Shown piece by piece: positions 18,909 through 63,640 of a DNA stretch of 64,000 bases (positions within the stretch are counted from its first letter, which is position 1; each line of letters opens with the position of its first letter). The stretch is from positions 934,001-998,000 of the forward strand of contig JAUPFP010000014.1 in assembly GCA_036925085.1 (NCBI GenBank). Direction: 5' to 3'. The translations under genes and the position numbers were made by a program. The DNA comes from Brachycybe producta (lineage: Eukaryota; Arthropoda; Diplopoda; Playtdesmida; Andrognathidae). The notes under the pieces are model-generated. The model saw only the letters and a list, made by a program, of their open reading frames with translations. It made no database searches and was not told where the DNA came from.

Positions 18909-19115
18909 ACAGGCAATTAGAAATTGGGACAAACAGTAGTTGGCTCCGCCCTTTTTTGTGACGACTGGTAACTTTTAATTGGTTTGTTGTGTGGTTCGAC
19001 GTTGAAAAGGGCGGAGCATGTGACGTCAAACTACATAACCAACCAATTAGAAGTTGCCGGTTGTCATAAAAAGGGCGGAGCCAACTTCTGTTTGTCCCGA
19101 TTTCTAATTGCCTGT
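18909..19115 (+). mobile_element. G-family MITE, copy 1
   Basis: Near-palindrome with ends ACAGGCAATTAGAAAT / ATTTCTAATTGCCTGT. Flanked by a perfect 9-bp direct repeat CTTTTGGTG (18900-18908 and 19116-19124). Arms carry CTCCGCCC and CAATTAGAAGTTGCC; the centre carries GTGACGTCA. No ORF. The 8-9 bp duplication fits hAT, Merlin or Mutator-type enzymes; I cannot choose. Confidence 0.9.
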
Positions 19116-19124
19116 CTTTTGGTG

Positions 19125-19610
19125 GCATCATTTCAGGTGTTTCTATGGCATATGACGTCACCAAACTGTAACTTTGAAGGACACCCCCCCCTCTGTATTA
19201 ATTACAATTTAATTACAAGTATTGATTAAGAAATTATTCGTCCTTCACTCAAGGACGTCTTTTTAACCAGGTGAAAGTTGTTTTTTTTGTGTGGCCCTGT
19301 TTTTTTATTAACTTTTTAAAAGAACTAATTAAAAATTACTCAACTGATGATGATGAACAAGCCATAAAAAATAACTTCGTAATTTTAGCATTATGTTAAT
19401 ACAGGATGTCCAAAAAGACACTTTTAGAAAGTATAAAAATCAAGTTTGTCTAAAAACTAGAAGAGTAAAGGAATTAAACATAAGGAGATTTTTTCATGTT
19501 TGATATCTTTCAAAATAAACTTTTTTTAATGAAAGTTTAAAAATTAAAAGATAATTTCTTATAAATATTTTTGAAAGATGTGATCACTGATCAGTGAATT
19601 ACGGCAAAAA
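19125..19610. other. No gene; T-family fragment
   Basis: 19440-19560 includes AAAACTAGAAGAGTAAAGGA and TATCTTTCAAAATAAACTTT of the T family. A TACAGGATGTCC motif is near 19401. Confidence 0.5.
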
Positions 19611-19890
19611 AGATGCTGCTTAGAGGCTAGAATTCTTATAGAATTAAACTACAGCTTCTTTGGCGATCCAAGATGCTGCTTAGAGGCTAGAATTCTTATA
19701 GAATTAAACTACAGCTTCTTTGGCGATCCAAGATGCTGCTTAGAGGCTAGAATTCTTATAGAATTAAATTACAGTTTCTTTGGCGATCGAAGATGCTGCT
19801 TAGAGGCTAGAATTCTTATAGAATTAAATTACAGCTTCTTTGGCGATCGAAGATGCTGCTTAGAGGCTAGAATTCTTATAGAATTAAACT
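19611..19890. repeat. Satellite, 60-bp unit, 4.7 copies
   Basis: Exact 60-bp period starting AGATGCTGCTTAGAGGCTAG and ending TTTGGCGATC. Copies differ at very few sites (ACTACAGC/ATTACAGT, GATCCA/GATCGA), so the array is young. Confidence 0.97.
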
Positions 19891-20706
19891 CCAGCTTAAT
19901 TAATTGTAGGTTAACTCTAGCCTCTAAACAGCCTCTTTGATTTTCGAACCGAACTGTAGACATCTATATATCTAAGCCAAAGTTAGGAAAATCCGGTGTT
20001 TGCATGCTGTAGTATTATTTTGAAGTCACTCTGTAAATGTGTATACTTCATTTAAAAGAGGTGAGGTTAGAGGCTATATTTTTAGAATTAACCCTACTTA
20101 AATGTTCACTTTAGCATGGAATTTGTTTATGCGTATCCATATTTCTAAATGAGCAGTAGACGAAATCCCTCCAATAATAAATAAGAGCAACATCTCTCCC
20201 CCACCTGAAGCCTCCTTTCCTCCCCTTACTCCCTCAACCGGATGACCGGTAAAGAGAGGATTTAGGGAAGGGGGAGGGAGAGAGGTGTTTGAGCTTTAAG
20301 TGTACAGTAGTTAAAGGGCTTTTTTTACCGTTGAAAGTAAATTTCTAATTGTGGTTTAATTGTGAGAAAACTGAATTTCATCTTCTCAAAGATGTTAAAA
20401 TAACTAAATAAAAAATGGAGGAAAGAGGAGGGATTTTGAGAATAGTTTAAAATAAAATAGCATAAATTAAGAGGTTGGGGGGGGGTCTCTCTTCTAACCA
20501 CATCATGTGACATTTTAAAATGAAACATCATAAGTTATGATTTATAACTAATATTTCTAAATTTCACAAGTTTGAAATTTACTAAAAAAAACTTCTTCTG
20601 AAACTAATCTCTAGAAAAACGTTTTAATAACAAAAATTTAAAACATCCTCCCCTTCCTTTCCTCTAACCACATGTGACATTTCAAAATGAAAGATCATAA
20701 CTAGAT
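19891..20706. other. No gene seen
   Basis: GAGGCTA and TAGCCTCTAA motifs at the left edge continue the satellite theme. 20200-20290 is pyrimidine- then purine-rich. No exon supported. Confidence 0.5.
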
Positions 20707-21037
20707 TAGCGCGGATTTTTATGCAATATCAAGCAAATGTTTCTCAATCTGTGGCCCCCAAAGTGCCCATTCAATTATGAAGTAACAATCTAGTTTAGAT
20801 CAACCAACAATTATGGTTTTTAAATCAATAAACACTATAAACACAATAAACACTGAGGCTAGAACTCTAGTTGAAAAATGATAGTAACTAGACATCTAGC
20901 CTCTATCGAGCCTTTTCGAGCATAATTGCAGTTGTTCTAATGATGATGATGATGATGATGATGATTACTTCACAATTGACACCTTGGGCCACAAAATGAG
21001 AAACATTTGCTTGATATTTGCATAAAAATCCGAGCTC
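20707..21037. mobile_element. TA-family MITE, copy 3
   Basis: GCGCGGATTTTTATGCAATA to TTTGCATAAAAATCCGAGCTC, with inner GAGGCTAGAACTCTAG / ACATCTAGCCTCTA and a (GAT)n tract at about 20940-20964. TA follows the right end. Confidence 0.85.
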
Positions 21038-21546
21038 TAATTATAACTAATATTTCTAAACTTCTACTAAAAAAAACCTTCTGAAACTAATCTCTAGAAA
21101 AACGTTTTTTTTTTCTCAAAAGTTTGAAGAGATTAGTTTTCAGAAGTTTTTTTTTTGTTAAGTTTGAAAGAAGATCTTTTACTTTTAAACATTTTTTATA
21201 AATTTTTGACAATTGTGACAATTGAATGACAGGTTCAACATACAAATTTACCAGATGTGGTTTCTCTTTTTCTTCTTCTTCTGAGGAGTTAGAGGAGTTA
21301 CAAATGTGCAAATTACACAGTTCAGTAGCAAATTTCCAACATTTTCAAATAACTTCAATGTCATCCATAGAACATTAATTAGTTTTACTCAGCAAAAAAA
21401 AAAAAGCCGTAAATTGAAAATTTGTTTAAAAAAAATTAGAATTAAAGTAAAACCTGGATAAAACGAAATCCTATGGCTCTAGGCAATTATTTTTTTTTTT
21501 CCGTTCTAACATTTTTCCGTTTTATAGACTTAATAACTTATAACTA
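21038..21546. other. No gene; possible pogo-like fragment
   Basis: AAACCTGGATAAAACGAAAT at about 21449 and CCGTTTTAT at about 21519 are inversely related and recall a Tigger/pogo terminus. Weak. Confidence 0.3.
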
Positions 21547-21853
21547 GGGTTCGGATTTTTATGCAAAATATCAAACAACTGTTTCTCATTTTGTGGCTCC
21601 AAGTCACAATCATCATCATTAGAATAACTTCAATTATGTTTTTTTTTCTAATCAAGGTTGGTTAGAGGCTAGATATCTGGTTTATATCAGTTGTCGACTA
21701 GAAGTCTAGCCTCTAACCGGTGTTGAAAGAAAAAAAATCATAAGCTTAATTGTTGGTTGATCTAATAAACGTGATTGTTACTTCACAATTGGCTCTTCTT
21801 GGGCCACAGATTGAGAAACATGTTGTTCATGTGTTGCATGAAAATCCGAACCC
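21547..21853. mobile_element. TA-family MITE, copy 4
   Basis: GGGTTCGGATTTTTATGCAA and TGCATGAAAATCCGAACCC are flanked on both sides by TA (21545-21546 and 21854-21855). The inner GAGGCTAGATATCT / AGTCTAGCCTCTAACC pair is present. Confidence 0.88.
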
Positions 21854-21862
21854 TACTAGGTT

Positions 21863-22560
21863 TAAGCTACCCTTCTAGTTTCTAAAAACACTTTCTAGTT
21901 TGTTTTTTTTTTTTAATTTTGCTGATGAAAGAATATTTCAATAATCGGAGTTTGAACGTCCGTTGAATTCTGGTTATTCTATCTTTCAGGAGCCAAAAAT
22001 TAAGAGAAACTAGAAATTGTTTTAGAAACTAGAAGGGGTAGCCCGAATCATTTAAGGCTATTATTATATTGTTTATAATTGTTATCTTTCAAATTAAACG
22101 TTTTGAGTCAGTTTGAAAAATGGACCCAACTTTTTAAACTCATGATATTTCGTCTAAAAAAAGTTTATTTTGAAAGATATCAACAAAATAGCTTTAAGAT
22201 TTTCAAATCCTCCTTAAGGTCGTTTTGAGGTGTCAAAGCCTCTCAAATTCAGGTTATATTCTGTCTTTAAGGTGCAAAATGAAGAGAAACTTGAATGTGT
22301 TTTAGAAACTAGAATGGTAAATCTCATTCACTTAAGTGCACATTTTCATGCTGATTATCTTTCAAATTAAGCTTTTTAGATCTATGTGAGTTTGAAATTT
22401 TTTATAAAAAGTTTATTTTGAAAGATATCAACATAAATTTTTTATAAAAAGTTTATTTTGAAAGATATCAACATGAAAATATCCTTTAAAGTGATTTGAG
22501 CTACCGAGTACCCTCCTAGTTTCTAAAATACATTCAAGATTATTCATTTTGCACCAGTCA
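21863..22560. mobile_element. T-family foldback cluster
   Basis: Alternating cores CTTCTAGTTTCTAAAAACAC and TTTAGAAACTAGAAGGGGTA, with TTATTTTGAAAGATATCAAC and its complement. A short segment (AAATTTTTTATAAAAAGTTT) is tandemly duplicated near 22397-22470. Confidence 0.8.
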
Positions 22561-23642
22561 CATGATCAAATCAACTCTGCTACAAGTTGTGTGGCCAACA
22601 ATTATGTTGATGGATATCAATTACAGAAAGATTTAGGCTTTAAATTTTTACAGAGGCCCAGAGGGACACTTTTATTAGATCCGTTCCATTCCCTCCCTCT
22701 TTGAAACCCAAACACAATTGTTGGCTTTCAAATATTAATGACCAATTAATAATTCAGTCGTGTGACTTGATAAAAATTGAACGATTTTTAAGCGAAAAAA
22801 GAGAGAGAGAGAGAGAGAAATATGAACAATTGTTCAATTGAACAACAAAAACGTAAAACAAGAAATGAATAAGCTGAATTTTGTGGGGGGGGGGAGGGTG
22901 GTTTTCCAGTTTATAACATTTTTTTCCAATGAAAATATCCACCCGCACCTTATTATTATTAAACACGCCAAAATGTGATCCCTATCAATTATGAGTCAGA
23001 AGGCTAGCGACCTCAATTGTAATACATTGTACATAGAGGGGATGGAAGGGAGGGAGGGGGGCAATAATATGGCACCTACCCCACCCCCCCCCCTCACAAA
23101 TGTGAAGAAGAAAACAAAAATCAATAATAAAACAATACATGGTCACATTTTGCACGTAAACACACCCACAATTATTGTCATAAGGTTAAAATTTCATGAA
23201 GAGCAGAATCTGGTACAAAAAAAAATGCCAAGATTTCTCTTTTAATTGCAGTGGTCGTGCTATAATTTGTCACCACCAGAGGTCACTTTTTAACTTTTGA
23301 ATTGCCGAACCACCAAAAAAAAAGCTGTGCATTACATTAAATTAAGCTTGTTGCAGGGGGTCGGGGGGGGGGGGGGGGGGGGGGGTGCAGCTCCCCAGAA
23401 TGTAAAAAAAAAATAATAGTGAAATATTAAGTTGATATGCACATCTGGCAACACTGCAAGTAAAAAGTGGCCTTAGTATTCTGTTTAGAAACACTGTGCG
23501 TTTATGATGCAAAAATAAAACACTGCATTACTATTGGCCAAAATCAAATTGACCAAAGCTATTACCAATGTCTTGTAGAAAGGATTGTAAGAGTGCCTAG
23601 GATATGAGCTTCTCTTACTGATGACACAAGACAAATTGTGGC
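22561..23642. other. Unique sequence, no confident gene
   Basis: A short GA run near 22800, several poly-C/G runs, and a run of about 23 G at 23363-23385. CACCACCAGAGGTCAC near 23270 resembles the CCAGAGGCGC motifs at 24137-24352. Confidence 0.5.
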
Positions 23643-24112
<470 letters not shown>

Positions 24113-24166
24113 GTCGCGTTTTCTCTGCCGAATTTCTCCACCAGAGGCGCCTTTTAGTTATGATTA

Positions 24167-24234
24167 CAGTAGAATCTCGATTATCTGGATCGCGGTAATC
24201 TGTTGATAATCCTGGGTAATCAAGATTCCTACTG
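24167..24234. mobile_element. Tiny pogo/Tigger-like MITE, 68 bp
   Basis: CAGTAGAATCTCGATTATC and GGTAATCAAGATTCCTACTG are terminal inverted repeats, flanked on both sides by TA (24165-24166, 24235-24236). CAGTAG...TCGATTATC ends are typical of pogo-group elements that duplicate TA. Confidence 0.75.
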
Positions 24235-24237
24235 TAT

Positions 24238-25194
24238 TTTCAATGATATGGAAGTAAAGTTGTCACCGTATGTCACCAGAGGCGTTACTTTAGCTTCATA
24301 ACACTTATAAACGGTTAGATGATCACAAAACAAAATGTTACCACCAGAGGCGCTGTTTCCCCCTTATAACTTAACATTAATTTAGCTTGGAGTTTAGGTG
24401 TTTCATGATGTATCTAGATAGAGACTTGAAGAAGCCTTAAAAAAAATATGAACCCCAACAAACAGATACATTCACCCAAAAAAAAATGATTCCCATCTGT
24501 GAAATACACTTTTTTTTCCAGAATCCCATGTGTTTAAATAATCAGAAGGGTCTCTTTATTTTTCCTGTGTCTCTCCCCTTCATTTCCTCTTCCACCTTTT
24601 TTTTTACGAGAGTAGACGTTCTACAACTGAACAGTTTTCCCATTAAATGTTAGCCTTACATCCACCCCTCTTACACGTGCAAACACCCTGAACCCCGCTA
24701 CTTCAACTACACCCCTCATCATGTGTATTCATTCATTCACCACCTGTGAGAGGGATGATGATGATAATAAAACATTATGGCCTTTCTAGTTTACACAATT
24801 TGTTTAGAATTGAAAAAACCACCCCCTCCCCCCTCCCTATTTTATATAATGATAATAAAATACAAAAGTTTGAGCAGAAAAAGAAACTTTTGATTATTTT
24901 AGATCAGATTTTGTTTATTTGTTCTAATAATTCACACAATGTGAAGAGAAAACAAAAAATGATAAAATATTTATTTGACGTCATTTTAAAATTTTACATT
25001 AGACGGAAACAATAAAAGTGGAATAAATCGATCAATAATGGAGATTTATTAGTTTTTTGTTGAAATTTGACCTGATTTTTAGGTGAACAAAAGAATAGAA
25101 AAATTTCAATAGAATTTGGACGCCATATTGAATTTGTTTTGGGATTTGAAAATTTATGAAGGTTTTTTTTTAATTTTTTCTTTCACGTAAAATA
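24238..25194. other. No gene; CCAGAGGCG motifs
   Basis: CACCAGAGGCG occurs at about 24274 and 24343 (and just before, at 24139). The rest is AT-rich without a supported exon. Confidence 0.5.
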
Positions 25195-25860
25195 TAATTC
25201 AGTGCCTCAGAGGAAAACAGTGTTAAGTCACATTTAAAAAAAATACATCATGATTTTTTTTTACATCTTTGAATCAGCTTGTTAAGTTCTGTCAGTGGTA
25301 AACAGTGGTAAGTCCACGGTTTTACACAACGGCCGCTAGATGGTGGTATACCATGTTAAGTCCCTATACCATTCAATGAAGAGAATAACTTTCAAATGAC
25401 TCCCATTTGTTCCATATACAGTTTCTCAGAGATAAACTGTGTTAAGTCACATTTTTTTGAAAAAACTCGTGAATTTTACATTTGAAGACTCAGCATGTCC
25501 AGTTTTATTAAGTGTAAACAGTGTTAAGTCTACAGTTTTATGCATCGGCCACTAGGTGGTGGTATACCGTGTTAAGTCCCTATTCCATGCAATGAAGAGA
25601 AAAACTTTCAAAGGACTTCCTATGTTCCATATACAGTGGCTCAAAGATAGTGTTGTCACATTTTTTAAAATACAAGATTTTTACATCTTATGAATCAGGT
25701 TGTCATGATCCATCAGTGGTAAACAGTTTTATGCATCGGCCACTAGGTGGTTGTATACCATGTTAAGTCCTATTCCCTTCAATAAAGAGAAACACTTTCA
25801 AATGACTCCTGTAAAATTTTAGGTTTTGTGACTTAACACAGTTTACTTCTGAGTTTCAAA
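25195..25860. repeat. Tandem repeat, ~190-215 bp unit, three-plus copies
   Basis: Each unit has TGTTAAGTC blocks, AACAGTGGTAAGTC or a similar block, CGGCCACTAGGTGGTGGTAT and CAATGAAGAGAA. The CCACTAGGTGG-type motif falls at 25333, 25549 and 25740. Confidence 0.9.
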
Positions 25861-26379
25861 GGCACTGATATATAAATGAAAACAAAAATGAAAAATGGAA
25901 TTTTCTAGTCTGTCACCATATGCGAATAAATATGGCGTTTTTTTCTTCTGGCTCATCCATTTCCGGTCATGCTCAGTGGTGCCTAATTCTAATACACACA
26001 GCAGTTGGGGGCTCTTCATATCACATATTCATCAGTGTTTCATGAAAGTAAAAAAAATTTACAATTCATAAAAAAACAGAAGTAACTCGTATTTTTTGTT
26101 AGAAATTTTTTTAAGGATTTATGTCTTTTTATGACAAATCTGATTTTAGATTCAAATTCGAGGAAACTTGGCACTTGGAACTCGGTTCTGAGGGTTCAAG
26201 TTGAAGTTCAAGTGACAAGTTTCATGTTGATGTAGGAAATTCTTAAAAAAGCTTATTTTAAAAGATATTAACGTGGAAATTAGAAAGTTTTATAACCTTT
26301 TTATAGACAAAAAATATCGTCTTTACTTAAAGTTGGAGCACAAAAAGTTAATTTTGAAAGATATCCAATATGGAAATAG
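25861..26379. other. No gene; E-family fragment
   Basis: 26166-26222 carries ACTTGGCACTTGGAACT and AAGTTGAAGTTCAAGTGAC of the E family. The rest is unassigned. Confidence 0.5.
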
Positions 26380-27619: not shown

Positions 27620-27651
<32 letters not shown>

Positions 27652-27690: not shown

Positions 27691-27715
27691 AAATATATTC
27701 AGGATCATTCAGATC

Positions 27716-31309: not shown

Positions 31310-31825
31310 CATATCTTTAGATAAAAAATACAATAAATATCGTCTCTCTCCATAAAATTGGAGCATAAAAAGTTTATTTTGAAAGATATCAAACATGAAA
31401 ATACTCCTTAAGTGATTGAACTACCCTTCTAGTTTCTAAAATACATTCAAGTTTCTCTTTATTTTGCACCTGTAAGATTGAATAATCAAGAGTTCAAGAG
31501 GTGTGTTTATACTTAAAACCACTTTAAGAAGAAACTAAAAAATGTTTTAGTACCTAGAAGGGTAGCTCAAACACGTAAGAGGGTATATTTTATGTTTGAG
31601 ATCTTTCAAAATAAACTTTTTATAGATAAAAAAAATACAATAAATATCGTTTCTCTCCATAAAATTGGAGCATAAAAAGTTTATTTTGAAAGATATCAAA
31701 CATAAAAATACTCCTTAAGTGATTGAGCTGCCCTTCTAGTTTCTAAAACACATTTAAGTTTTTCTTTATTTTGCACCTGAAAGATTGAATTAATCAAGAG
31801 TTCAAGAGGTGTTTACACTTAAAAC
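31310..31825. mobile_element. T-family foldback, two tandem copies
   Basis: AAAAAGTTTATTTTGAAAGA, ACCCTTCTAGTTTCTAAAAT and TGCACCTG appear twice at about 300 bp spacing (31370 and 31677), with an inverted TAGAAGGGTAGCTCAAAC between. Confidence 0.8.
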
Positions 31826-31952
31826 CACTTCTAATTGGTTGGTTATGAAGTCTGACGTCACGTCGAACCACACAACAAACCAATTAGATGTTGCCGGTCG
31901 TCATAAAGAGGGCGGTGCCAACTTCTGTTTGTCCCGATTTCTAATTGCCTGT
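31826..31952 (-). mobile_element. G-family MITE, copy 2 (truncated)
   Basis: Left terminus lost; an internal deletion joins TCTGACGTCACG directly to TCGAACCACACAAC. The right arm is complete to ATTTCTAATTGCCTGT. It sits where a T-family element would continue, so it marks a T/G junction. Confidence 0.8.
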
Positions 31953-32491
31953 ATTAATTATCACTTATGGATTCATTATTTATGATATTAATAAGTTGAT
32001 AATGACGGTTTTTAAAGTGATTGTTTATGAGCAAAAACAATTAAACAAAAATCACGATTAAGAAAACACACACAAATGACAAAAGAAAAAAAGTCCCTCA
32101 AAAACAATTCATGTGAAATTCTTAGTAAAAGTTGCAGAAAAAAACACAAAAGGCCTTAAAGGGGATTTTTTTTCTTTCTCAATTAGAAAAAGAAGAGAAC
32201 AATTGTTTCATTTTAAAACATTTTTGTTATATATTGTCAATGTTAAAATGAAGGTAAAAAAAAAAGACAAAAGAGAATTTCAAAGATACAAATCTACCTT
32301 AAAATACACACAAAATGTTTAATGAATTTAATGGACACTAATGAGGGCTAAGTTGAAAAATAGAGCAAACATCACACACACACACAAAAGGAAGAAAAAT
32401 CTCGTTATTGCGTGGTGGCCCCACGATCTCCATGAGTTTCTTTAATAGTTTCTTAATTGGTGGCTCGCGGGCCAATTATATATCATTGGTG
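31953..32491. other. AT-rich, no gene seen
   Basis: A lysine-rich 69-codon frame at 32113-32322 looks like low-complexity sequence, not a gene. A short (CA)n occurs at about 32374. Confidence 0.5.
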
Positions 32492-34338: not shown

Positions 34339-34346
34339 GTCTGTAC

Positions 34347-34552
34347 ACAGGTAGTTAGAAATAGGTGAAAACTTCAGTTGGCTCCGCCCTTGTTATGACG
34401 ACTGACAACTTCTAATTGGCTGGTTATGTAGTCTGACGTCACATGCTCCGCCCTTTTCAACGTCAGACTACATAACCAGCCAATTAGAAGTTGCCAGTCG
34501 TCATAACAAGGGCGGAGCCAACTGTAGTTTTCACCTATTTCTAACTACCCGT
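34347..34552. mobile_element. G-family MITE, copy 3 (fully palindromic variant)
   Basis: Perfect 8-bp direct repeat GTCTGTAC at 34339-34346 and 34553-34560. Unlike other copies, the block CAGACTACATAACC or its complement is present on both sides of the centre, so the arms are more symmetric. Contains CTGACGTCACATGCTCCGCC. Confidence 0.92.
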
Positions 34553-34970
34553 GTCTGTACTCTGTATAATTTATTGTTGGACACTCTGTACCTGTTTTTA
34601 AGCCAAGGATGTGGTTTTCTTTTAGGTTATTTTAAAGCCTCTCTCCTAAAGGTCTTTTTTTTTAGGTCTCCTGATCCTTTAATCCTCATTTGGAATCCCT
34701 ACTCTCAAATGCAACATCTAAAATCCTTTTCAATGTCTCCTACTTTAATCTGATAAAGCTACCTGAATTTATGACGATGATGATGATGCAATAATTAAAG
34801 ATTTACATTGCAACAAAAACAATTCGCCAATATACATACAGTAATGCTGAAATAATGAAATATGCAATAAAAACACGAAAATATGCGGAATAAGTAGAAA
34901 TAATTCTATAGATTTTTTTTAATATTTCAGACTTTTATAACAAAAATAAAATATTCTTTTTAAAAACAAT
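34553..34970. other. Unique sequence, no gene seen
   Basis: Nothing supported beyond a short GAT run near 34774. Confidence 0.5.
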
Positions 34971-41393: not shown

Positions 41394-42381
41394 AAAATGA
41401 TGTTCTGCTTGAGTTTTTCATTGGTTGGTTGATTTTTAACGCATGCGTGTTAAGATGGATCTAGGCTGTATAGGCTAGTATGGACTGAATTTGCGCTAAA
41501 TTAAAAATCATAAAGGCTAAGTTGTGGAACAATTGATGCAAAAGCAATAAAGCATTGAATAATAAATGATTTACAGTAAGATTTTTCGGCACATGAATGC
41601 TAAAAAACAATAAAAGCTAAAATGTGCAGTTAGAAAATGCTACACTGTATAAAAAAGCTAAATAGGATATGAGCTAAACTGAAACAAACTCAGAAAATTG
41701 TGTAAAGATATAACAAGAGCTAAAGTTATCTAAAGTTGACAACAGCTAAACACAGGAAATTAGAAAACGAGATGAACAGAGCTAGGCCCTTTTTATGATG
41801 AATGGTAACTTCTAATTGGTTTGTTGTGTGGTTCGACGTTGAAAAGGGCTGAGCATGTGACGTCAGACTCCATAACCAATCAATTAAAAGTTGCGTTCGT
41901 CATAAAAAGGGCGGAGCCAACTTCTGCTCATCCCGTTTTCTAATTGCCTGTCAGCTAAACTGAACCAGAGCTAAAATTTAACAGAAGCTAAACAGGACTA
42001 TAATGGCAAGCTGAATAAACAATTATACTGGAAAATATTTAAGAACTAAAACAGCTTAAATTGGGCAAAAGCTAAACTTAACAAATAAAATATACAAGAG
42101 AGCTAATCTGAACAAAAATTAAGCTAAAGTGGATAAGAATGGAAGCATGACAAAAGCTAAAATCAACATTAACCAATGCTAAACTATTATATTGATTAAA
42201 AACTGAACATTATTCACGAGTTAAACAAAATCACTAATAGTTCAAATTGAAATTTATTTTAGCTCACTGTTTCTCCACAAGTTAATTACTAATACAAATT
42301 GAAACATAATTGGTCAATTTGCAATATAATTATCTACATTAATTATATTTTCTGCATGTGGAATCGTAGCCTTAAGTGTTA
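41394..42381. repeat. Diffuse AGCTAAA-rich region
   Basis: Irregular AGCTAAACTG, ACAAAAGCTAAA and GAGCTAA motifs resembling a decayed version of the 16-bp satellite at 16010-16520. Interrupted by a G element at 41752-41951. Confidence 0.55.
41752..41951 (+). mobile_element. G-family MITE, copy 4
   Basis: Flanked by a perfect 9-bp direct repeat CAGCTAAAC (41743-41751, 41952-41960). Ends ACAGGAAATTAG and CTAATTGCCTGT; GTGACGTCAGAC in the centre. Inserted into the AGCTAAA-rich region. Confidence 0.92.
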
Positions 42382-44300: not shown

Positions 44301-44496
44301 GTAATGTTGCTTCGAAAAACGTTCTCTTCACGGTTTTGTGTCTAAATTTTATGTTAGATACTGGGAGGACATAAGCAAAATAAATATCTATAAAGCCACC
44401 TTAAGTTAATGTGAAATCAACTTCATAATTGATGACAAAAGATCTCTTCTAGTCTTTTAAAATTGGATTTTCTTCTTGTGTTGGTGGCAACTTTTG

Positions 44497-44702
44497 ACAG
44501 ACAGTTAGAAATCGGGGAGAACTTCAGTTGGCTCCGCCCTTGTTATGACGACCAGCAACTTCTAATTGGTTTGTTGTGTGGTTCGACGTTGAAAAGGGCG
44601 GAGCATGTGACGTCAGACTCCATAACCAACCAATTAGAAGTTGTCGGTCGTCATAACAAGGGCGTAGCCAACTGAAGTTCTTCCCGATTTCTAACTGCCT
44701 GT
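44497..44702 (+). mobile_element. G-family MITE, copy 5
   Basis: ACAGACAGTTAGAAATCGGG to CCCGATTTCTAACTGCCTGT, with GGCTCCGCCCTTGTTATGAC arms and GTGACGTCAGAC. A target duplication is not clean (AACTTTTG versus TAGCTTTT), so it is eroded or undefined. Confidence 0.88.
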
Positions 44703-45357
44703 TAGCTTTTTGTATTAGAAATTTTGTAGAACTTTTAGGAAAGGGGGGGGTGGAGAGAGGGCCCCTTATTAAAGTAATCAACACGTCATCACTTTTAAAT
44801 TTTGAACGTTTTTAAAGTAAAAACGTGTTTTGAATTCCAGGTGTGTCTTTTTTTTGTTGTTGAAGGAGTTATTTTTCAATTTCAGAACAATTTTCTGAAA
44901 ATGACTTTGTGGTTTTTTTTTTCTTTCTTTCATTTTGCCTTGCGACTTATTGGATTGACTTTTTTTCCTTTGTGGTCCGTGGACCAACATATTTTTCTTA
45001 AGTGTGTCGTGCCCCAAAGCTTATCTATTAAAAGCCTACAACATTTTAATTGTGGTTCTTATGGCTTTTTTAAGGGGGGGGGGGAGAGAGAGAGAGAGAG
45101 AGAGAAATAACTATTTCAACTTTTTAGTCTTACCCCCTCCCAGTCTTTAAAAAAAAACTTTTGTTATCTTCAACTTTTTTTTAGAAAAAAAAACAACCTC
45201 ACGTTTTTCTAGTAAATAAGACATGTAATATGTTATAATGGGGTAATGAATGGGATGGGCAACTTCTTGGCTCGCGAATTACACCTTGGGGCCATTTAGT
45301 AGTGCTCATTAGAAAGAGCCACTTCTGAGTTTGAAAACAACTAGAAGTGAAAAACCG
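44703..45357. other. No gene seen
   Basis: A short G run and (GA)n at about 45076-45106. No exon supported. Confidence 0.5.
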
Positions 45358-45951
45358 TTTAAAAGGGGCTTCATATAAAAATACTTGTGGAAATGCACGA
45401 TAGACGGCGCTTTGCAATCCCCCCCCCCCCCTCAATAGGTGGCAAACTACACTCGTCGCCAATTAGTTGAAATAGAATGCAGCCTTTTAGCACAGGCATC
45501 TGCAGACAGCTTCAGAATTTCTTTGGCTCCGCCCCTTTTATGAGCGTCAGATCAAATATCAACCATTAGAAATAGAAAGGGCGGGGGCATATGACATAAG
45601 ACCCAGTAACAAACCAATTAGAAATTGATGACGCTCATAAAAGGGTAGAGCTTAAGAAATTCTGAATCTGCTACAAATGCCTGTAGCCAAATGCCAAATG
45701 CCTGCCTGTCAGCTCTCAAAGCGTCCAAAACAACCTTAATTATCAGCACGTGCACAAACAACCCGGAACAAACATGTACGTGAAGAGAGCACGTGTAGAA
45801 ATAGTGACGCAAATTAAAAGTTTGCCACGTGCAAAAAAGGAAAGTGAGTCAAGAGTTGAAGAGTGTCTTCAGTATATTTCTATTAAAGGAGGGCTAGTGG
45901 CGCCATCTAATGCTACATGGACAAGATAAATGATTCTACTTGCATTCTTAA
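45358..45951 (-). repeat. Dispersed repeat R1, copy 2, interrupted by G2
   Basis: Inverted relative to 109-486 and collinear with it on both sides of an inserted G2 element (about 45492-45710). GGCGCCATCTAATGCTAC lies near the right end, and a C run disturbs the left part. Confidence 0.85.
45492..45710. mobile_element. G2-family MITE, copy 1 (in R1)
   Basis: ACAGGCATCTGCAGACAGCT at the left and CAAATGCCTGT at 45684, followed by a second partial end CAAATGCCTGCCTGTC to 45710. GGCTCCGCCCCTTTTATGAG arms and AACAAACCAATTAGAAATTG. Compared with uninterrupted R1, only AGC appears duplicated at the junctions. Confidence 0.8.
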
Positions 45952-51423: not shown

Positions 51424-51429
51424 TTATTT

Positions 51430-52699: not shown

Positions 52700-52793
52700 C
52701 CCACCTCGAACTCTTGATTATTTTGTATTTCAGGTAAAAGAAAATTAAGATAGTGTTTTAGAAAGGGGGGTAGCTCAATCAATCACTTAAGAG

Positions 52794-53001
52794 ACAGGCA
52801 ATTAGAAAACGTGATGAACAGAAGTTGGCCCCGCCCTTTTTATGACGAACGGCATCTTTTAATTGGTTCGTTGTGTAGTTCGACGTTGAAAAGGGCGGAG
52901 AGCATGTGACGTCAGACTACATAACCAACCAATTAGAAGTTGCCGGTCGTCATAAAAAGGGCGGAGCCAACTTCTGTTCGTTCCGTTTTCTAATTGCCTG
53001 T
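52794..53001 (+). mobile_element. G-family MITE, copy 6 (inside T)
   Basis: Perfect 8-bp direct repeat CTTAAGAG at 52786-52793 and 53002-53009. CTTAAG is part of the T consensus, proving insertion into a pre-existing T element. Centre GTGACGTCAGAC; arms GGCGGAGCCAACTTCTGTTC. Confidence 0.95.
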
Positions 53002-53057
53002 CTTAAGAGGTATTTTCATGTTTGATATCTTTCAAAATAAGCTTTTTTTTATGTAAG

Positions 53058-55961: not shown

Positions 55962-55984
55962 CCGAGACTCCGACCATATAAATG

Positions 55985-56191
55985 ACAGGCAATTAGAAAT
56001 CGGGACAAACAGAAGTTGGCTCCGCCCTTTTTATGACGGCCGGCAACTTCTAATTGGTTTGTTGTGTGATTAGACGTTGAAAAGGGCGGAGCATGTGACA
56101 TCAGACTACATAACCAACCAATTAGAAGTTGCCGGTCGTCATAAAAAAGGGCAGAGCCAACTTCTGTTTGTCCCGATTTCTAATTGCCTGT
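55985..56191 (+). mobile_element. G-family MITE, copy 7
   Basis: Flanked by TATAAATG (55977-55984) and TATAGATG (56192-56199), an 8-bp duplication with one change. The centre reads GTGACATCAGAC, the only copy with a damaged CRE. Confidence 0.93.
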
Positions 56192-56273
56192 TATAGATGT
56201 GCCAGCACAACTGTGCTACTTATTGAAGGCAACTTAAACGCTTACACTTCACAATACAAATGAACACGTGCTG

Positions 56274-56478
56274 ACAGGCAATTAGAAAACGGGATAAACA
56301 GACGTTGGCTCCGCCCGTTTTATGACAAACACGACTTCTAATTGGTTGGTTATGTAGTCTGACGTCACATGCTCCGCCCTTTTCAATGTCGAACCACACA
56401 ACAAACCAATTAGAAGTTGCCATTCGTTATAAAAAAGGCGGAGCCAATGTCTGTTTATCCCGTTTTCTAATTGCCAGT
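56274..56478 (-). mobile_element. G-family MITE, copy 8
   Basis: Perfect 9-bp direct repeat CACGTGCTG (56265-56273, 56479-56487). Opposite orientation to copy 7, 82 bp away. Centre CTGACGTCACATGCTCCGCC. Confidence 0.95.
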
Positions 56479-56498
56479 CACGTGCTGTTGTTTACAAC

Positions 56499-56565
56499 CA
56501 GTAGTGGATTTACCATTTTGCCACCCCTAGGCAGCAACCATGGTACTGCCCCCAAGACACATTAA
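56499..56565 (+). mobile_element. hAT-type terminal fragment
   Basis: CAGTAGTGGATTTACC followed by ATTTTGCCACCCCTAGGCAG closely resembles a common class of animal hAT 5' ends (CAGTGG-GGATTTA, then GCC-CCCTAGGCA). No matching 3' end found nearby. Confidence 0.6.
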
Positions 56566-56581
56566 AGACACATTAGTAAAA

Positions 56582-56671
56582 AAATTCGGCGAACATTCGC
56601 CCGAAAATTCGGCGAACATTCGTCAAAAATTTTTTGCGAACATTCGCCAAAAATACGGCGAACATTCGCCA
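56582..56671. repeat. Short tandem repeat with GGCGAACATTCGCC hairpins
   Basis: Four copies of a ~22-bp unit, AAAATTCGGCGAACATTCGC or close. GGCGAA and TTCGCC make each unit self-complementary. Confidence 0.88.
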
Positions 56672-57560
56672 CTACACCAACAAGACAAGAGGGGATTAGA
56701 TACTATTTTTTCTACTTTTTAGAATTTTTATAAAAGCGAGTTAAAATTAATTTGTGATTATTAAATGTTTTTGTAATTTTTTTTAAATTGAAAAATGAAA
56801 AAGAGCAACTTTTTCTTTTTACGTTAATTTTAAATGTTAATTTCACGTTAATGTAAAAAAAATTACAGAAAAACATTTCGCAAAAATCGCATCAAATAAA
56901 TACAATTGCAAATAAGTTTCCTCTGAAGAGGCTGCTACTGCTATATATTAGGCTTGTCTCCATTTTCTGAAGCGTCATAATAATGCAGTAGGGGGCGGGG
57001 CAGTGTGTGACAGAGGTAAATCAACTCCATGTTATTTCTAATCGCCAAATGTGAGTGAATAATCGTCTGCTTTTTGAAGCTGTAAGGAAGACATCTTGTT
57101 AAAGGAGGACGGAATAGGTTTTAATCTCGTACGGTATGGCTGGCTATTTCCAAGGGGGACGACATTGGGAGAAAATCTCGTACGCAGTGTAATTGTATAA
57201 TAACTGAAGCACTAAATACAGTTTGCGCCCTCTATTGGCGGCACTTAACTATGGCACAAATGCTCCAATAGGAAGAGCGCTTAGTTGATTTACTCACCTC
57301 TATATATTTAAATATCTTGCTTTGAATGGGCATTGTGCTAAGTTCTTCGGAAAATACTTGATGTCACAGGCTGTTTATGTTACAGAATCATAGATATTTA
57401 AGAAAAACCAATATGGCGTCGAATTTACAGACAAATTAATGTTATGGATGCCATATTAGTACACCAGCTTAGCTTCATACATAGAACTAAAAAAAAGTAA
57501 TAATATCGAAATTTTTAATTTACTTCAGTATGTAGGCGGGTTTTTTTAAAACATGAGAAG
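56672..57560. other. No confident gene; small inverted pair
   Basis: About 57015-57300 contains GAGGTAAATCAACT and AGTTGATTTACTCACCT as distant inverted arms, and two AATCTCGTACG copies (57124, 57174). Possibly an unrecognised foldback. Confidence 0.4.
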
Positions 57561-57695
57561 TAGGGATGGCGAAATTTTATAAAAATCGAAATCTGTCCAA
57601 TATTTAAAAAAAAATCGATTTAGAAAAAATTGAGAATAAATCGAAAAATCGAGAAAAACCGAAAAAAAAATCGATATATCGAAAATTTTGTCAGC
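57561..57695 (+). mobile_element. hAT-like terminal fragment, ATCGA-rich
   Basis: TAGGGATGGCGAAATTTTAT followed by repeated AAATCGA and CGATATATCGA, a pattern common at hAT ends. No second terminus seen. Confidence 0.45.
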
Positions 57696-58164
57696 CTTAA
57701 TGGGGGATGTTTTATAAGAGTAATTCAATCTGACATAAAAAACCGCTTGATCTGCCCTTCTAGATTCTCTGACGTCACAAATATAATCACGCCCAACTAG
57801 AAAGCCTGATTAGTCGTGCGTGCGTGAGTCGTGACTAACTTATTTGTCACGCATGCATGTGAATTTCACGATTTTACAGTTATTTCACATGGAGGGATGT
57901 GGTTATAATGTAGACATTGGGGGTCTTGCGATTGGATAAATTAATTAATAATAATTATATTACATTGTTTGGTGATCAGTTTTCATCTGTCTCAGTTTTT
58001 ATGTCTCATCAGAAATGTGATAATGATAATGTTACCAAGTAATTAATTGAATATAAAAAGTAAAATTAGAAATGAAATTTTAGAAATAAATTTGTATTTT
58101 AGGGTTTGAGGCGACCCCAGTATGATTAAGGTCACACTGGGGTTCTGAAGGGCCTAGTAACATG
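57696..58164. other. No gene seen
   Basis: Nothing supported. Confidence 0.5.
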
Positions 58165-58690
58165 AGCTGAGCATGAAGCTGAAAGTCTCTTTCATAAGCT
58201 GAGAGCGTCTTTCTGAAACTGACAAATTATTTCTAAAGCTGTGAGCCTATTTCTGGAGTTGAGAGCCCTTTTTGAAGCTGAGAAACACTTTATGTAGATA
58301 GGAGCTCTTTTTAAAAGCTGAAAGTTCTTTTCTAAAGCTGAGAGCACCTTTTTGATAGTGACAACCTCTTTCTGAAGTTGTGAGTTTCTTTCTGGAGTTG
58401 AGAGCTTTTTTTAAAGCTGAGTATGCCTTTATGAAACTGACAAACCCTTTCTGAAGTTGAGAAGCTTGTTTTGAAGCTGTGAGCTTCTGTCTGGAGTTGA
58501 GAGCCCTTTTTGAAGCTTTTAAAAAAAAAAACTGAGAACCACTTTATTAAGCTGAGAGCTCTTTTTGAAGCTGAGAGGCACTTTATGAAGCTGAGAAGGC
58601 ACTTTATGAAGTTCAGAGCTCTTTTTGAAGCTGAGTGCGCCTTTCTGAAACTGACAACCTCATCATTCTGAAGCTGATAGGCTTTCACAG
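58165..58690. repeat. Minisatellite, ~20-40 bp unit
   Basis: Degenerate units of TTTTTGAAGCTGAGAGC, CTTTCTGAAACTGACAA and CTTTATGAAGCTGAGA. The 118-codon minus frame is a translation of the array. Confidence 0.9.
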
Positions 58691-58875
58691 AAGCTAAAAA
58701 CGCAACACTAAATTTTTTTATTGATCTTTTAAAGCCTCTCCATGAAATTGTATGTACGAGCGTATTTGAAGCTAAAATTGCGGAGTTTTTTTTAAAGTTA
58801 AGCTTTAATTAAGCCAAAAGTCCTTCTCAGAACTTCTCTTGACGTAGAAAAAAAGGTCCAGATTATAAAAGGCAA

Positions 58876-59006
58876 TTCAGTACTTGAACTTTCTGAAAAG
58901 TGTTCTAAACACAGAAAGAAAAACTTCCTGATTTATTGGGTTCTTTCTACGTCGAAACTGGTGCTCAGAGGGTTCGTTCAAGTTGAAGTTCAAGTACCCA
59001 AGTTCG
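58876..59006. mobile_element. E-family foldback, copy 3
   Basis: CAGTACTTGAACTTTCTGAA with GTTGAAGTTCAAGTACCC, and GTGTTCTAAACACAGAAAGA with TCTTTCTACGTCGAAAC. Confidence 0.68.
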
Positions 59007-59343
59007 TTTCTTGAATGCGTATTAGGACACCTGAGATGTTCCAGACGCCTCAAAAAAAGCCATAAAAATATTAATTTTGCTGATATTTAACCTTTATTTT
59101 TGACCTTTTTTAATAATTTGATAAAACTTTAGCAGACATTCAATTTTAACTTGAAAATTTTTCTATGAATTTGTCATGTGATGTTTGAACTGTAGCAGAA
59201 TGATGAAACTTAAGAATCAATTGAAAGACATTAAACTTGAGGCCATAAAAAATTATTTCATAAAAGAATTTAATTACTTTTTAATACAAAGATATTTAGG
59301 ACAAGATGAACAAAAAAAAACCTAGTCACGTGGTAGGTCTATG
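59007..59343. other. AT-rich, no gene seen
   Basis: Nothing supported. Confidence 0.55.
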
Positions 59344-59780
59344 TAAAGCCCCGTTTTCACGATAACAGTTGCTGTCACGATAGTTGCTGTCATGATAGCA
59401 GCAGCAACTATCGCGAGAACTATCAACGTGAAGACCACTTGATAGTCACTATCGCCCACTGTCACGATAGCACTATCACAACTATCTCGTTTGACCAGAT
59501 AGTTGATAGTACTGTCGCGATAGTAATAGTTGTTGAGTGACCACTTAGTAGGGAAATATCCACTTTGTAGGGAAATTTGGCTTCTGGAGGGAGAGAGAGA
59601 GAGGCAACTCTGTTGTTGACTCAATGATATCTGTGTGAAGTTAGACGTGTCACACTGTCATGTGACAGACTTCACGTTACTTCAAGACATGTAGACAGTT
59701 GCTATCGTGAGATTTAACTATCACAACTTTCATGACAGCTACTCTCACGGTAGAACTATCGCCGTGAAAACGAGGCTTTA
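59344..59780. mobile_element. Foldback with TAAAGCC ends, GATAGT-rich
   Basis: TAAAGCCCCGTTTTCACG at the left and CGTGAAAACGAGGCTTTA at the right. The interior is packed with ACTATCG, GATAGTT and CTGTCACGATAG in both orientations, so many stems are possible. If TA is the duplicated target, AAGCC is the terminus. Single copy here; no ORF of merit. Confidence 0.78.
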
Positions 59781-59907
59781 TGAAGAAAGAAAGAAATTAT
59801 GAGATTTCATCGTCATTTTCATATTTAATGTGAAAAAGATAATTAAAAATTATTTATTACAATGTTATCATACTTTGGGGGGTTCACATTGTGAACCCGA
59901 TTCTGTA

Positions 59908-60106
59908 ACAGGCATCTTTTAGACAGCTTCAGAATTTCTTTGGCTCCGCCCTTTTATGAGCGTCATCAATTTCTAATTGGTTTGTTATTGGGTTTTATGT
60001 CACATGCTCCACCCTTTTTTATTTCTAATTGGTTGTTATTTGGTCTGACGCTCAAAAAAGGGCGGAGCCAAAGAAATTCTGAAGCTGTCTAAAAAGGGAT
60101 GCCTGT
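59908..60106. mobile_element. G2-family MITE, copy 2
   Basis: ACAGGCATCTTTTAGACAGC to GATGCCTGT. Arms CTTCAGAATTTCTTTGGCTC and GGCGGAGCCAAAGAAATTCT. Flanks GATTCTGTA (59899-59907) and GATTTCGTA (60107-60115) look like an eroded 9-bp duplication. Confidence 0.85.
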
Positions 60107-60125
60107 GATTTCGTATGGTTGATTC

Positions 60126-60800
60126 CGTATAACCCATAAAAGAGTTTGCATGGTTTCTGAAGGGCTTTATTGGCTCCAGAGAAGTTCCTAAAAAGCTTTA
60201 AAAAGTAGAGTCAAGAATTTTTTTAATTTGAAAAAAAAAAAATGGTAAGAAATCATGGCTTATTTTTTTTAAAAATGGCTATAAATCGAAAAAAAAAACT
60301 AAAATGCTCTAAATTTCCCTAAAAATGGACGAAGAAGGGCTTAACTGGTTCCAGAAGTCCCAAAAACCTTAAAAAAGTAGAAAACTCAAAAATTATTTAA
60401 ATAAAAAAAAATGGTAAGAAATCATAGCTTACTTTTTTTTAAATGGCTATAAATAAAAAAATTAAAATGCTGTAAAATTCCCTAAAAATGGCTGAAGAAG
60501 GGGCTTAACTATTTCCAAAAGTTCCAAAAAGCTTTAAAAAAAAGTAGAAAGATTCAATGTTTTTTAAAATACTTAAAAAAAAACATAAGCAGGCATCAGG
60601 AGAACTCAATTAGTCCTAGAAGTCTCAAAAGGTTAAAAAGTAGAAAGACTCATGAATTTTTAAAATTCGAAAAAATGGTGGAAAAAAAAAGAAATGTCTT
60701 CTTTTATTAAAAAAATGACCAAAATTAGAAAATGTTCTCTTAAGAATTTTTTTTTTTAAAAAAAAGTCCTACTAGGGCTTAAGGGGGCCACCTGAAATCT
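60126..60800. repeat. Degenerate tandem repeat, ~100-175 bp unit, five copies
   Basis: Units share GGCTTAACTGGTTCCAGAAG-like and AAAAAGTAGAAA blocks, with AAATGGTAAGAAATCATGGC between some. Related to 7226-7810. Confidence 0.8.
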
Positions 60801-61479
60801 CAAAAAGCTTTAATAACTCCATTAAAATTCAGTTACAAATAGAAAAAATTGCTAAAAAAAATAATCCGGACTACAAGACAATAATTGTAAATTTAACCCC
60901 TTGAACACCAACTGTGGTGTCACACATGTCATCTATTGGTTAATGTTGAATTTTGTAAAACAATCAAATAAGCTTCTGTCCATTTGAACTCAATCTGATT
61001 TTAAAAACACTTCTCAAATTATAATTTAAAGGTTATTGAGATCATCAGACATTTGTTTTTGGAGGGGGGGGGGGAGGGTTTTAATACAATTGAAATACAA
61101 TTAAGTTAAATTTGTTTTGCAAAATTTTCTTTAATATTTTCAATAAAATAAATCGATAATATAAATAATTATGGTTATTTTTTTTTTTAGAAATTTATTT
61201 TATGGATATTTTTTTAAATGTTGTCTTTTTAGTTTATTTGTTGCTCGCTAGAAGGCGCTGGCAGTTCAAATGGCAGCTCTATGTTAATTCAACTTTTTTT
61301 TTAAGAAATATATTTATTAAAATTTAGCTTAGCAACTAAACAAATTAATCAAAATTCTTTATCAAATTCGATATAAAAAATGTTTGCTATTGAAAAAGAC
61401 AAGACAATAAGACATTTTTTTAAATAAAATATTTAAATAGGATAATTTGAATATAAAAAAAAGGTTTCTCAATCCGACC
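60801..61479. other. AT-rich, no gene seen
   Basis: Nothing supported beyond a G run near 61062. Confidence 0.55.
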
Positions 61480-62710
61480 CTGGAAAATATTCAAAGTTTC
61501 TTAGAAACTAGAAAAAACATTATGTCAAAAGTATTTTCAAGATATCAGCATGAAAATAGCCTTTAGTGATTGAATTACCTTTCTAGTTTTCTAAAATACT
61601 TTCTAAAGATAAATTAGGTTAGAAACTAGAAAGGTTGCTGAATTCCTTAATTCTATTTTAATATTGATATTTTTAAAAATTAACTTTTTTTTAAACAAAA
61701 ACAAAAACTGAAAATAATATAATTTCATTTTATTTCAAAAGTGTAATAAAAATGGTGTATTTTGAAAGATGTCAACATGAAAATAACCCTCTTAAGTGAT
61801 TGAACTACCTTTCTAGTTTCTAAAACACTTTCTAGTTTCTAAAACACTTTCTAAAGATAAATTAGGTTAGAAACTAGAAAGGTTGCTGAATTCCTTAATT
61901 CTATTTTAATATTGTGATATCTTTAAAAATTAACTTTTTTTAAACAAAAACAAAAACTGAAAATAATATAATTTCATTTTATTTCAAAAGTGTAATAATA
62001 AAAATGGTATATTTTGAAAGATGTCAACGTGAAAATAGCCTTAAGTGATTGAATACCCTTCTAGTTTTCTAAAACGCTTTGAAGTTTGTCTTGAAAGAAT
62101 CAAGATTTCGAAAATCAGCTGTTCATAAACCATCTTAAAATTTGGTATTTTTTCAAAAGTATAATAAAAATGTACATTTTGAAAAATGTCAACTTCAAAT
62201 TAAGTGATTGACTCTACTCTTCTAGTTTCTAAAACACTTTCCAGTTTATCTTAATTTGGTATTTGAAAGAATCACAATATCGAAAATATTTGTTCATAAA
62301 CCATCTGAAATATAAACATGTCCTTTTACTCTTCTAGTTTCTTACAGACTTTGAAATTCACTTCATTTATTTAAAAATGAAACCTGAGACAGAAAAAATG
62401 GCATTTCTCCTAAAATACCAAATGACCTAACCAAAAATAACAAACATCCTACATCAACATCAACGTGACAATAGCCTTAAGTGATTCAGTTGCTCTTCTA
62501 GTTTCTAAAGCATTTTCAAGTTCGTCCTGAAAGGATCGCGATATCGAAAATCAGCTGTTCATAAAAACCATCTTAAAATTTGGCATTTTTTTTAAAAAAA
62601 GTGCAATAATAAAAATGGTATATTTTGGAAGATGACAAATAGCTTTAAGTGATTCAGTTACTCTTCTAGTTTCTAAAACACTTTGAGGTTTATTTTCTTT
62701 TTAAAAAAAG
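61480..62710. mobile_element. T-family cluster with an internal tandem duplication
   Basis: At least five T cores (CTTCTAGTTTCTAAAACACT and complements). A block of about 235 bp, including GATAAATTAGGTTAGAAACT and AACAAAAACAAAAACTGAAA, is present twice in direct order (about 61580-61760 and 61845-62010). 62380-62450 carries the outer arm seen at 48285-48350. Confidence 0.82.
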
Positions 62711-63334
62711 AATATTCTTCATGAAATGGAGAAATGAATAGAATTTAAATAACGACGATTTCAAAGCTGTTTCTCAATGCAACAGCAATTTGAATAGTCA
62801 AATGTCACCTTTAATTGTCTTGCCTCCATTTCACACCCTCTTTTTTAAGCATATAAAATTACTAAATATATGTAATCATTATTAAAAATGAGAACACGTC
62901 TGTCTGGTTTATGTCCTTGAAATTATTATCACTATGGTCCTCCTCCTCCTCCTCTTTTTAAAATATATTTAATGTTTCATATTTCATATATTTCGAGAAT
63001 TACATTTTTATGATCTATTGAAATAAAAAATGACATGAAAAACGTCTATAATTTTTAAAAAAATGAAGAAAAAGTATTGCGAAAAAAAAAAAGCTTCTTA
63101 TCTTTCAAAAGTTGCGCAAAAGTAAAACAAATCTCTCATCTTCAACCCTTTTCCTCCTCCATTTTTTTTACCTAAACAATAGCATCTTATACAATAACAA
63201 TAATTGTTATTGTTATTGTTATTTTTAGAACATAAATTTCAAGATCTTGGCCTGTGTCCGGAAACTTAAAAAAAAACATATTATGCGTAAAGGAAAGCGG
63301 AAAACTACATATGCAATAGATGAGGCTTGTTGTG
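62711..63334. other. AT-rich, no gene seen
   Basis: A short hairpin at about 63196-63224 (ACAATAACAATAATTGTTAT). Nothing else supported. Confidence 0.5.
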
Positions 63335-63395
63335 TAAAGAAAACATGTCCGGGAACCTTATTAAGAAAGCAAGAATGCTTGCTTTCTTGAGAACG
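63335..63395. mobile_element. M-family fragment
   Basis: AAAGAAAACATGTCCGGGAA, then an AAGCAAGAATGCTTGCTTTC hairpin. A short remnant of the element at 46120-46473. Confidence 0.5.
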
Positions 63396-63435
63396 TTAAG
63401 AATCAAGAGCTCGAAAATCAGCTCTGACAGTGGGA

Positions 63436-63640
63436 ACAGGCAATTAGAAAACGGGATGAACAAAAGTTGGCTCCGCCCTTTTTATGACGAACGGCAACTT
63501 CTAATTGGTTTGTTGTGTGGTTCGACGTTGAAAAGGGCAGGGTATGTGACGTCAGACTACATAACCAACCAATTATAAGTTGCGTTCGTCATAAAAAGGG
63601 CGGAGCCAACTTTTGATCGTCCCGTTTTCTAATTGCATGT
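63436..63640 (+). mobile_element. G-family MITE, copy 9
   Basis: ACAGGCAATTAGAAAACGGG to CCCGTTTTCTAATTGCATGT. CAGTGGG occurs on both sides (63428-63434, 63642-63648). Centre GTGACGTCAGAC. Confidence 0.92.

What the first reader, a model, noticed from the sequence alone, without database searches (positions are those of the whole stretch)
18909..63640. G family: nine hairpin MITEs that each look like a promoter cassette
Every copy has GC boxes (GGGCGGAG) in both arms and CCAAT-type boxes (ACCAATTA). Eight of nine have an intact TGACGTCA (a full CRE) in the centre; copy 7 has TGACATCA. The motif is kept in diverged and truncated copies. CREB/ATF, NF-Y and Sp1 binding to these motifs is established in animals; that the MITE acts as a promoter or enhancer is inference.
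Basis: partly seen in the sequence, partly recalled or inferred. Interest (0 to 1): 0.75.

Follow-up and report, generated by a model that had tools for sequence, protein, structure and literature searches.

The report
Abundant hairpin transposons carrying CRE motif
These are copies of a small, very abundant hairpin-shaped jumping element in an animal genome; its promoter-like motifs are real, but a promoter role is not shown and the key motif is at best slightly better kept than its surroundings.

Summary
The observation largely holds. Nine hairpin copies are present; eight have TGACGTCA and copy 7 (55982-56195) has TGACATCA. The claim of GGGCGGAG in both arms of every copy is overstated: it is exact in 3 of 9.

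The family is a non-autonomous hairpin DNA transposon of about 206 bp, with 9,573 core matches in the 295 Mb genome. Of 100 copies with both ends found, 50 have a 9-bp target duplication with at most 1 mismatch, which points to MULE (Mutator-like) mobilisation. MULE domains occur in the genome; none was found between G-type ends in the flanks read.

Genome-wide, the CRE octamer is intact in 78.5%, against 66-73% for three neighbouring octamers. In 99 aligned copies it is unexceptional after base-composition correction (rank 42 to 81 of 166, by cut-off), and its CpG decays about as fast as comparable CpGs (13/198 against 87/1421). The sister family lacks it (0 of 10 full-length rows).

Best reading: terminal-repeat modules of a MULE-type foldback MITE, possibly with an inherited terminal promoter.

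The parts
18908..19118 (-). G copy 1; TGACGTCA at 19021; 9-bp duplication CTTTTGGTG on both sides
31821..31955 (+). G copy 2, truncated: outer left arm and loop missing; TGACGTCA at 31853
34343..34556 (+). G copy 3, nearly perfect palindrome; TGACGTCA at 34434; 8-bp duplication GTCTGTAC
41749..41953 (-). G copy 4; TGACGTCA at 41858; 9-bp duplication CAGCTAAAC
44495..44704 (-). G copy 5; TGACGTCA at 44608
52790..53004 (-). G copy 6; TGACGTCA at 52907; 8-bp duplication CTTAAGAG
55982..56195 (-). G copy 7; TGACATCA at 56096-56103 instead of the CRE
56272..56482 (+). G copy 8; TGACGTCA at 56360; 9-bp duplication CACGTGCTG
63435..63641 (-). G copy 9; TGACGTCA at 63547
45485..45685 (-). sister-family (S) hairpin copy; TGACATAA (read on the + strand) at the CRE position
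59898..60107 (+). sister-family (S) hairpin copy; TGACATAA (read on the - strand) at the CRE position

Best explanation
The G family is a non-autonomous hairpin (foldback) DNA transposon of about 206 bp, most likely moved by a Mutator-like (MULE) transposase. Shown: long arms, 9-bp target duplications, thousands of young copies, a G copy inside another G copy, and outer arms whose subfamily differences match each other. Inferred: the repeated GC-box / GACG / CCAATTAG modules in the arms are mainly what is left of MULE-type terminal repeats, that is transposase-binding and perhaps terminal promoter sequence, and they are still visible because the copies are recent. The CRE is a family-level feature of this burst that is decaying in the copies at about the pace of the rest, or slightly more slowly; some copies could still bind CREB/ATF.
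For: 9-bp duplications: 35 of 100 exact and 50 of 100 with at most 1 mismatch, against 1 of 100 exact at 7 bp and 2 of 100 at 10 bp. 9,573 core matches with up to 2 mismatches, reversed control 0. Nested G copies with duplication ACAGAAGTT in L101 (read by eye). Outer arms covary: pair 24/187 is complementary in 82 of 96 copies against 37 expected if independent; pairs from column 58 inward mostly are not (copies are related, so few events may underlie this). 21 MULE-domain matches in the genome. The same modules recur in the sister family, in L032 as tandem 54-bp units. The CRE octamer has 0.78 to 0.96 of the changes expected from its base composition, rank 42 to 81 of 166 octamers according to the cut-off for private changes. 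Published parallels, seen as passages: animal MULEs Muta1 and Tm1 have long TIRs, 8-9 bp duplications and subterminal repeats; MuDR TIRs hold transposase sites and promoters.
Against: No MULE gene bounded by G-type ends was found: flanks were read for 8 of 21 MULE matches, one of them on one side only. One MULE gene (C89:404186) is bracketed by S-type ends that form a 34-bp inverted repeat, 91% identical, but the flanking 9 bases do not match and the left end belongs to a complete S hairpin (read by eye). The CRE octamer is modestly better kept than three neighbours genome-wide (p from 1e-27 to 3e-7), and counting all differences it has 28/792 against 1425/17412 elsewhere (the excess elsewhere is largely subfamily differences in the outer arms). 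35 of 100 copies show no clear duplication.
Confidence: 0.66

Rival explanations
1. Each copy is a working promoter or enhancer cassette: CREB/ATF, NF-Y and Sp1 bind the CRE, CCAAT and GC boxes, so the burst scattered thousands of cAMP-responsive sites.
For: CRE octamer intact in 2321 of 2955 (78.5%) against 2321 of 3250, 3185 and 3501 (71.4, 72.9, 66.3%) for ATGTAGTC, CATGCTCC and CTCCGCCC. A pKID domain, hallmark of CREB (recalled), is encoded at C6:6764023. Passages seen: MuDR terminal repeats hold promoters; human MER20 elements function as enhancers in decidual stromal cells, which differentiate in response to progesterone and cAMP.
Against: The GC box is the worst kept of the four. 7 of the 25 variant rows of one control listed (first 100 rows, by eye) share one form, TTATGAAGTC, probably a subfamily, which inflates that control. 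In 99 copies the CRE is unremarkable after composition correction and its CpG shows no clear protection. The sister family spread without a CRE.
Confidence: 0.19
2. The hairpin is mobilised by another transposase that leaves 8-9 bp duplications (for example Merlin-like, recalled), not by a MULE.
For: No G-ended MULE element found in the flanks read.
Against: 9 bp with long arms is typical of MULEs (passages) and MULE domains are present. Other transposase families were not searched for.
Confidence: 0.2
3. The main consequence of the copies is hairpin RNA (a small-RNA source) rather than transcription-factor binding.
For: Near-perfect 95-bp arms in copy 3.
Against: No small-RNA data; stem perfection follows from the transposon structure.
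Confidence: 0.1

Closest known systems
Muta1 and other Aedes aegypti MULE families with non-autonomous derivatives (PMC5225508, passages)
   Same: Long terminal repeats, 8-9 bp duplications, subterminal repeat units, non-autonomous derivatives in an animal
   Different: Autonomous member known and active; over 300 derivatives of Muta1, not about ten thousand; no CRE mentioned in the passages seen
Tm1 Mutator/Foldback elements of root-knot nematodes (PMC3169594, passages)
   Same: Foldback arms built of repeated motifs, mostly 9-bp duplications, MITE-like members
   Different: Different arm motifs; a Phantom-like transposase is known for Tm1
Maize MuDR terminal inverted repeat (PMC3310237, passages)
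   Same: Terminal repeat as a place for both transposase binding and promoter motifs
   Different: Plant element; promoter function reported there, not tested here
Human MER20 (PMC9732941, passages)
   Same: Short DNA-transposon family reported as dispersed enhancers in a cell type that responds to cAMP
   Different: Functional data exist for it; MER1-class element, and no CRE or 9-bp hairpin described in the passages seen

Membership tests
MITE / hairpin non-autonomous DNA transposon | short, terminal inverted repeats, no coding capacity, high copy number, target duplication | tested here: met
   about 206 bp; arms 93-95 bp in copies 3, 5 and 6; 9,573 core matches; 9-bp duplications. Of 7 window ORFs of 130 aa or more, one overlaps a copy (18787-19197, minus strand) and it runs beyond the copy at both ends
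Mutator-like (MULE) superfamily | 8-10 bp (mostly 9 bp) target duplication | tested here: met
   with at most 1 mismatch: 50 of 100 copies 9 bp, 11 of 100 8 bp, 4 of 100 10 bp, 35 of 100 none clear; 6 of 106 copies left out for unclear ends
Mutator-like (MULE) superfamily | long terminal inverted repeats | tested here: met
   arms of 93-95 bp in copies 3, 5 and 6; slightly below the >100 bp called typical in PMC5225508 (passage)
Mutator-like (MULE) superfamily | MULE-type DDE transposase between the same ends | tested here: inconclusive
   21 MULE matches; flanks of 8 of 21 read, one on one side only, no G-type end pair; S-type ends bracket one MULE gene without matching flanking bases
CREB/NF-Y/Sp1-driven promoter cassette | CRE kept better than surrounding bases | tested here: inconclusive
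   better than three neighbours genome-wide; unexceptional in 99 aligned copies and CpG not clearly protected
CREB/NF-Y/Sp1-driven promoter cassette | transcription start, open chromatin or factor binding at copies | not testable with these tools
   no expression or chromatin data available

The most novel reading that the evidence does not exclude
A MULE-type hairpin burst carries a cAMP-responsive terminal promoter and, with roughly 6,600 intact CREs (about a fifth of all 35,739 TGACGTCA sites in the genome, an estimate), has rewired CREB-responsive transcription in this animal.
Probability: 0.1. Interest if true: 0.65.

Novelty: new member of a known kind. Interest (0 to 1): 0.33.

Why it matters
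A single young transposon family appears to supply about a fifth of the perfect CREs in an animal genome. If even some bind CREB, it is a ready natural experiment on how transposons build regulatory networks. As it stands it is an abundant foldback MITE with a clear target duplication and an unknown autonomous partner, and a caution that promoter-like motifs in young repeats need a conservation test against neighbouring bases.

Tried and rejected
CRE-guided insertion. Three G copies had an extra TGACGTCA 37-39 bp outside the end, and a fourth (L045) at an uncertain distance. Genome-wide, the near window (22-52 bp) gave 75 matches and the far control (222-252 bp) 78. Of the 75, 59 were listed with sequence; 11 of these I set aside by eye as lying inside G or S elements, and the other 48 showed no clear peak (11 at 36-40 bp against 7.7 expected). 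Rejected.

MULE genes as owners of G ends. G and S copies lie beside several MULE genes, but as hairpins of their own, not as terminal repeats of the gene. The C13/C28 MULE has a different left boundary. Not established.

CCAAT block. The left-arm block around TAATTGGTTGG is the best kept after composition correction (TAATTGGT 10 changes against 21.3 expected), but its mirror ACCAATTA in the right arm has 17/768 private changes, so I do not claim constraint.

CpG comparison mended. An earlier script set all CRE CpG changes (13/198) against only rare changes at other CpGs (94/2293), which is not like for like. redoes it at several cut-offs; the report uses those.

The species was not identified. 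Literature: searches gave no paper on this family in the rows listed; several listings were capped (74: 6 of 22; 81: 10 of 12; 82: 10 of 24,828; 112: 10 of 1,275). One listed paper that I did not open (PMC3459987) concerns a piggyBac-derived protein tethered to AP-1 sites and contains TGACGTCA.
Full report
WHAT IS THERE. The window holds nine copies of one hairpin element, at the coordinates given under parts, plus two diverged sister copies. Eight of nine have TGACGTCA; copy 7 has TGACATCA. Copy 2 is truncated. GGGCGGAG is exact in both arms in 3 of 9 copies, not in all; ACCAATTA is present twice in 7 of 9; the CCAAT core at least twice in 9 of 9. The CRE lies where stem meets loop. The stem of copy 3 is far beyond chance (z -26).

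WHAT IT IS. The window lies in a 295.3 Mb genome of 442 contigs. A core pattern with the CRE masked and up to 2 mismatches matches 9,573 sites, and its reversed control none. Ten 10-kb stretches at round-number positions, not chosen for G, hold 6 G and 4 S copies in 100 kb, so the true number is probably higher. Intact ends read ACAGGC...GCCTGT or close variants. Of 106 full copies, 100 had both ends recognisable: 35 have an exact 9-bp duplication, 50 have 9 bp with at most 1 mismatch, 11 fall in the 8-bp class, 4 in the 10-bp class, 35 show none. In L101 a G copy sits inside another, flanked by ACAGAAGTT, followed by a hybrid copy that would fit a later crossing-over (my reading of the sequence). 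Outer-arm positions that differ between subfamilies change together: at pairs 10/201, 24/187, 29/182 and 30/181, 79-92 of 96-97 copies are complementary against 36-56 expected if independent. Pairs from column 58 inward mostly are not coordinated. The copies are related by descent, so few events may underlie these counts.

WHICH MACHINERY. 9-bp duplications with long arms are typical of animal MULEs (PMC5225508, PMC3169594, passages). The genome has 21 MULE-domain matches. I read flanks of 8 of these 21, one on one side only, and found no MULE gene enclosed by G-type ends. G/S copies lie beside several MULE genes as hairpins of their own. One MULE gene (C89:404186) is bracketed by S-type ends (34-bp inverted repeat, 91%), but the adjacent 9 bases differ and the left end is part of a complete S hairpin. 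So MULE mobilisation is the best inference, not a demonstration.

IS THE CRE MAINTAINED? (1) Whole-genome masking of one octamer at a time in a 35-base core: all exact 2,321; CRE masked 2,955 (78.5% intact); ATGTAGTC masked 3,250 (71.4%); CATGCTCC masked 3,185 (72.9%); CTCCGCCC masked 3,501 (66.3%). The CRE is better kept; p from 1e-27 to 3e-7. Limits: only copies exact elsewhere in the core are counted, copies are related, only three control octamers were tested, and one of them has a common variant form (TTATGAAGTC, 7 of 25 variant rows among the first 100 listed, by eye). (2) 99 aligned copies: 71 selected for exact core flanks and 28 others (8 from the window, 6 from the unselected stretches, 14 from C1 loci and lacking exact core flanks); 7 top hits of one query and 35 partial, weak or duplicate hits were left out. 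Rare ('private') changes at the CRE are 21/792 against 523/17,412 elsewhere; all changes 28/792 against 1,425/17,412. In the 28 others alone the CRE ranks 44 of 199 octamers by raw private rate, in the 71 selected copies 132 of 166. With correction for base class the CRE has 21 changes against 26.0 expected, rank 42 of 166; with other cut-offs for 'private' rank 51, 81 or 44 of 166 and observed/expected 0.84, 0.96 or 0.78. (3) Its CpG: at a 10% cut-off 13/198 changes against 87/1,421 at the 15 other CpG bases without a common alternative (p 0.75); at a 6% cut-off 6/191 against 70/1,229 (p 0.17). No clear protection either way. (4) The sister family, with similar boxes and ends: none of the 10 forward rows with at least 190 aligned columns has TGACGTCA; most read TGACATCA (of all 41 rows, 14 read TGACATCA and 8 TGACGTCA, the latter being 5 G copies that escaped masking, in L095, L099 and L101, and L046, L063, L094). 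So a CRE is not needed for this lineage to spread, and constraint on it in the G copies is at best mild.

CREB SIDE. One strong pKID match (E 5.7e-16; none in the 14 control genomes) indicates a CREB-type gene, so binding is possible. TGACGTCA occurs 35,739 times, about 21 times the shuffle expectation scaled from the window. Taking 69 of the first 100 rows as intact (by eye), G supplies roughly 6,600, about a fifth; this is an estimate.

A LEAD THAT FAILED. Extra CREs 37-39 bp outside three G ends suggested CRE-guided insertion. The genome-wide near window gave 75 matches and the far control 78; no effect.

HOW IT LIKELY WORKS. Shown: mobile hairpin, 9-bp duplication, matched outer arms. Inferred: a transposase recognises the repeated arm modules of both ends. 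Inferred by analogy with MuDR (PMC3310237, passages): arms may keep terminal promoter activity. Not shown: any transcription-factor binding or transcription.

VERDICT. An ordinary kind of element with unusually rich motif content, very abundant and young. The promoter-cassette reading is possible but unproven; the evidence on the CRE is mixed.

Noticed in passing
whole genome; first listed sites on C1: TGACGTCA is about 21-fold over-represented genome-wide and G explains only about a fifth (estimate). Among the first 100 listed sites at least six pairs lie 159-168 bp apart, suggesting another repeat family with two CREs.
   Followed up: partly
L036 3220 and 3736; L042 2792: TGACGTCA also sits in other repeats that did not match G or S (inverted or multi-copy matches).
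   Followed up: partly
L103 1-753 (C2:4237900-4239400); matches at C2, C5 and C38: MULE open frames of 844-1088 aa occur in head-to-head pairs with domains 1.5-2.3 kb apart; a downstream stretch in the same frame as one of them has weak matches, below the curated cut-offs, to a PHD finger and an Ulp1 protease domain.
   Followed up: partly
L032 2640-2920; L047 1960-2500: Sister-family hairpins with the core module repeated, in L032 as a tandem 54-bp unit.
   Followed up: partly
L101 312-921: Cluster of nested and hybrid G copies sharing duplication ACAGAAGTT, next to a MULE gene.
   Followed up: partly
L089, L095, L099, L101 (flanks of MULE genes): G/S copies look denser beside MULE genes than in unselected stretches; few independent events, not tested formally.
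   Followed up: no
flanks of G copies: CGCCATCT / AGATGGCG is commoner 10-89 bp from G ends than in background (6 against 0.66 expected, picked from many 8-mers); it resembles a CTCF-type core (recalled).
   Followed up: no
window 14304-14879 and 4926-5570: Other long inverted repeats outside the nine copies, perhaps further hairpin elements.
   Followed up: no
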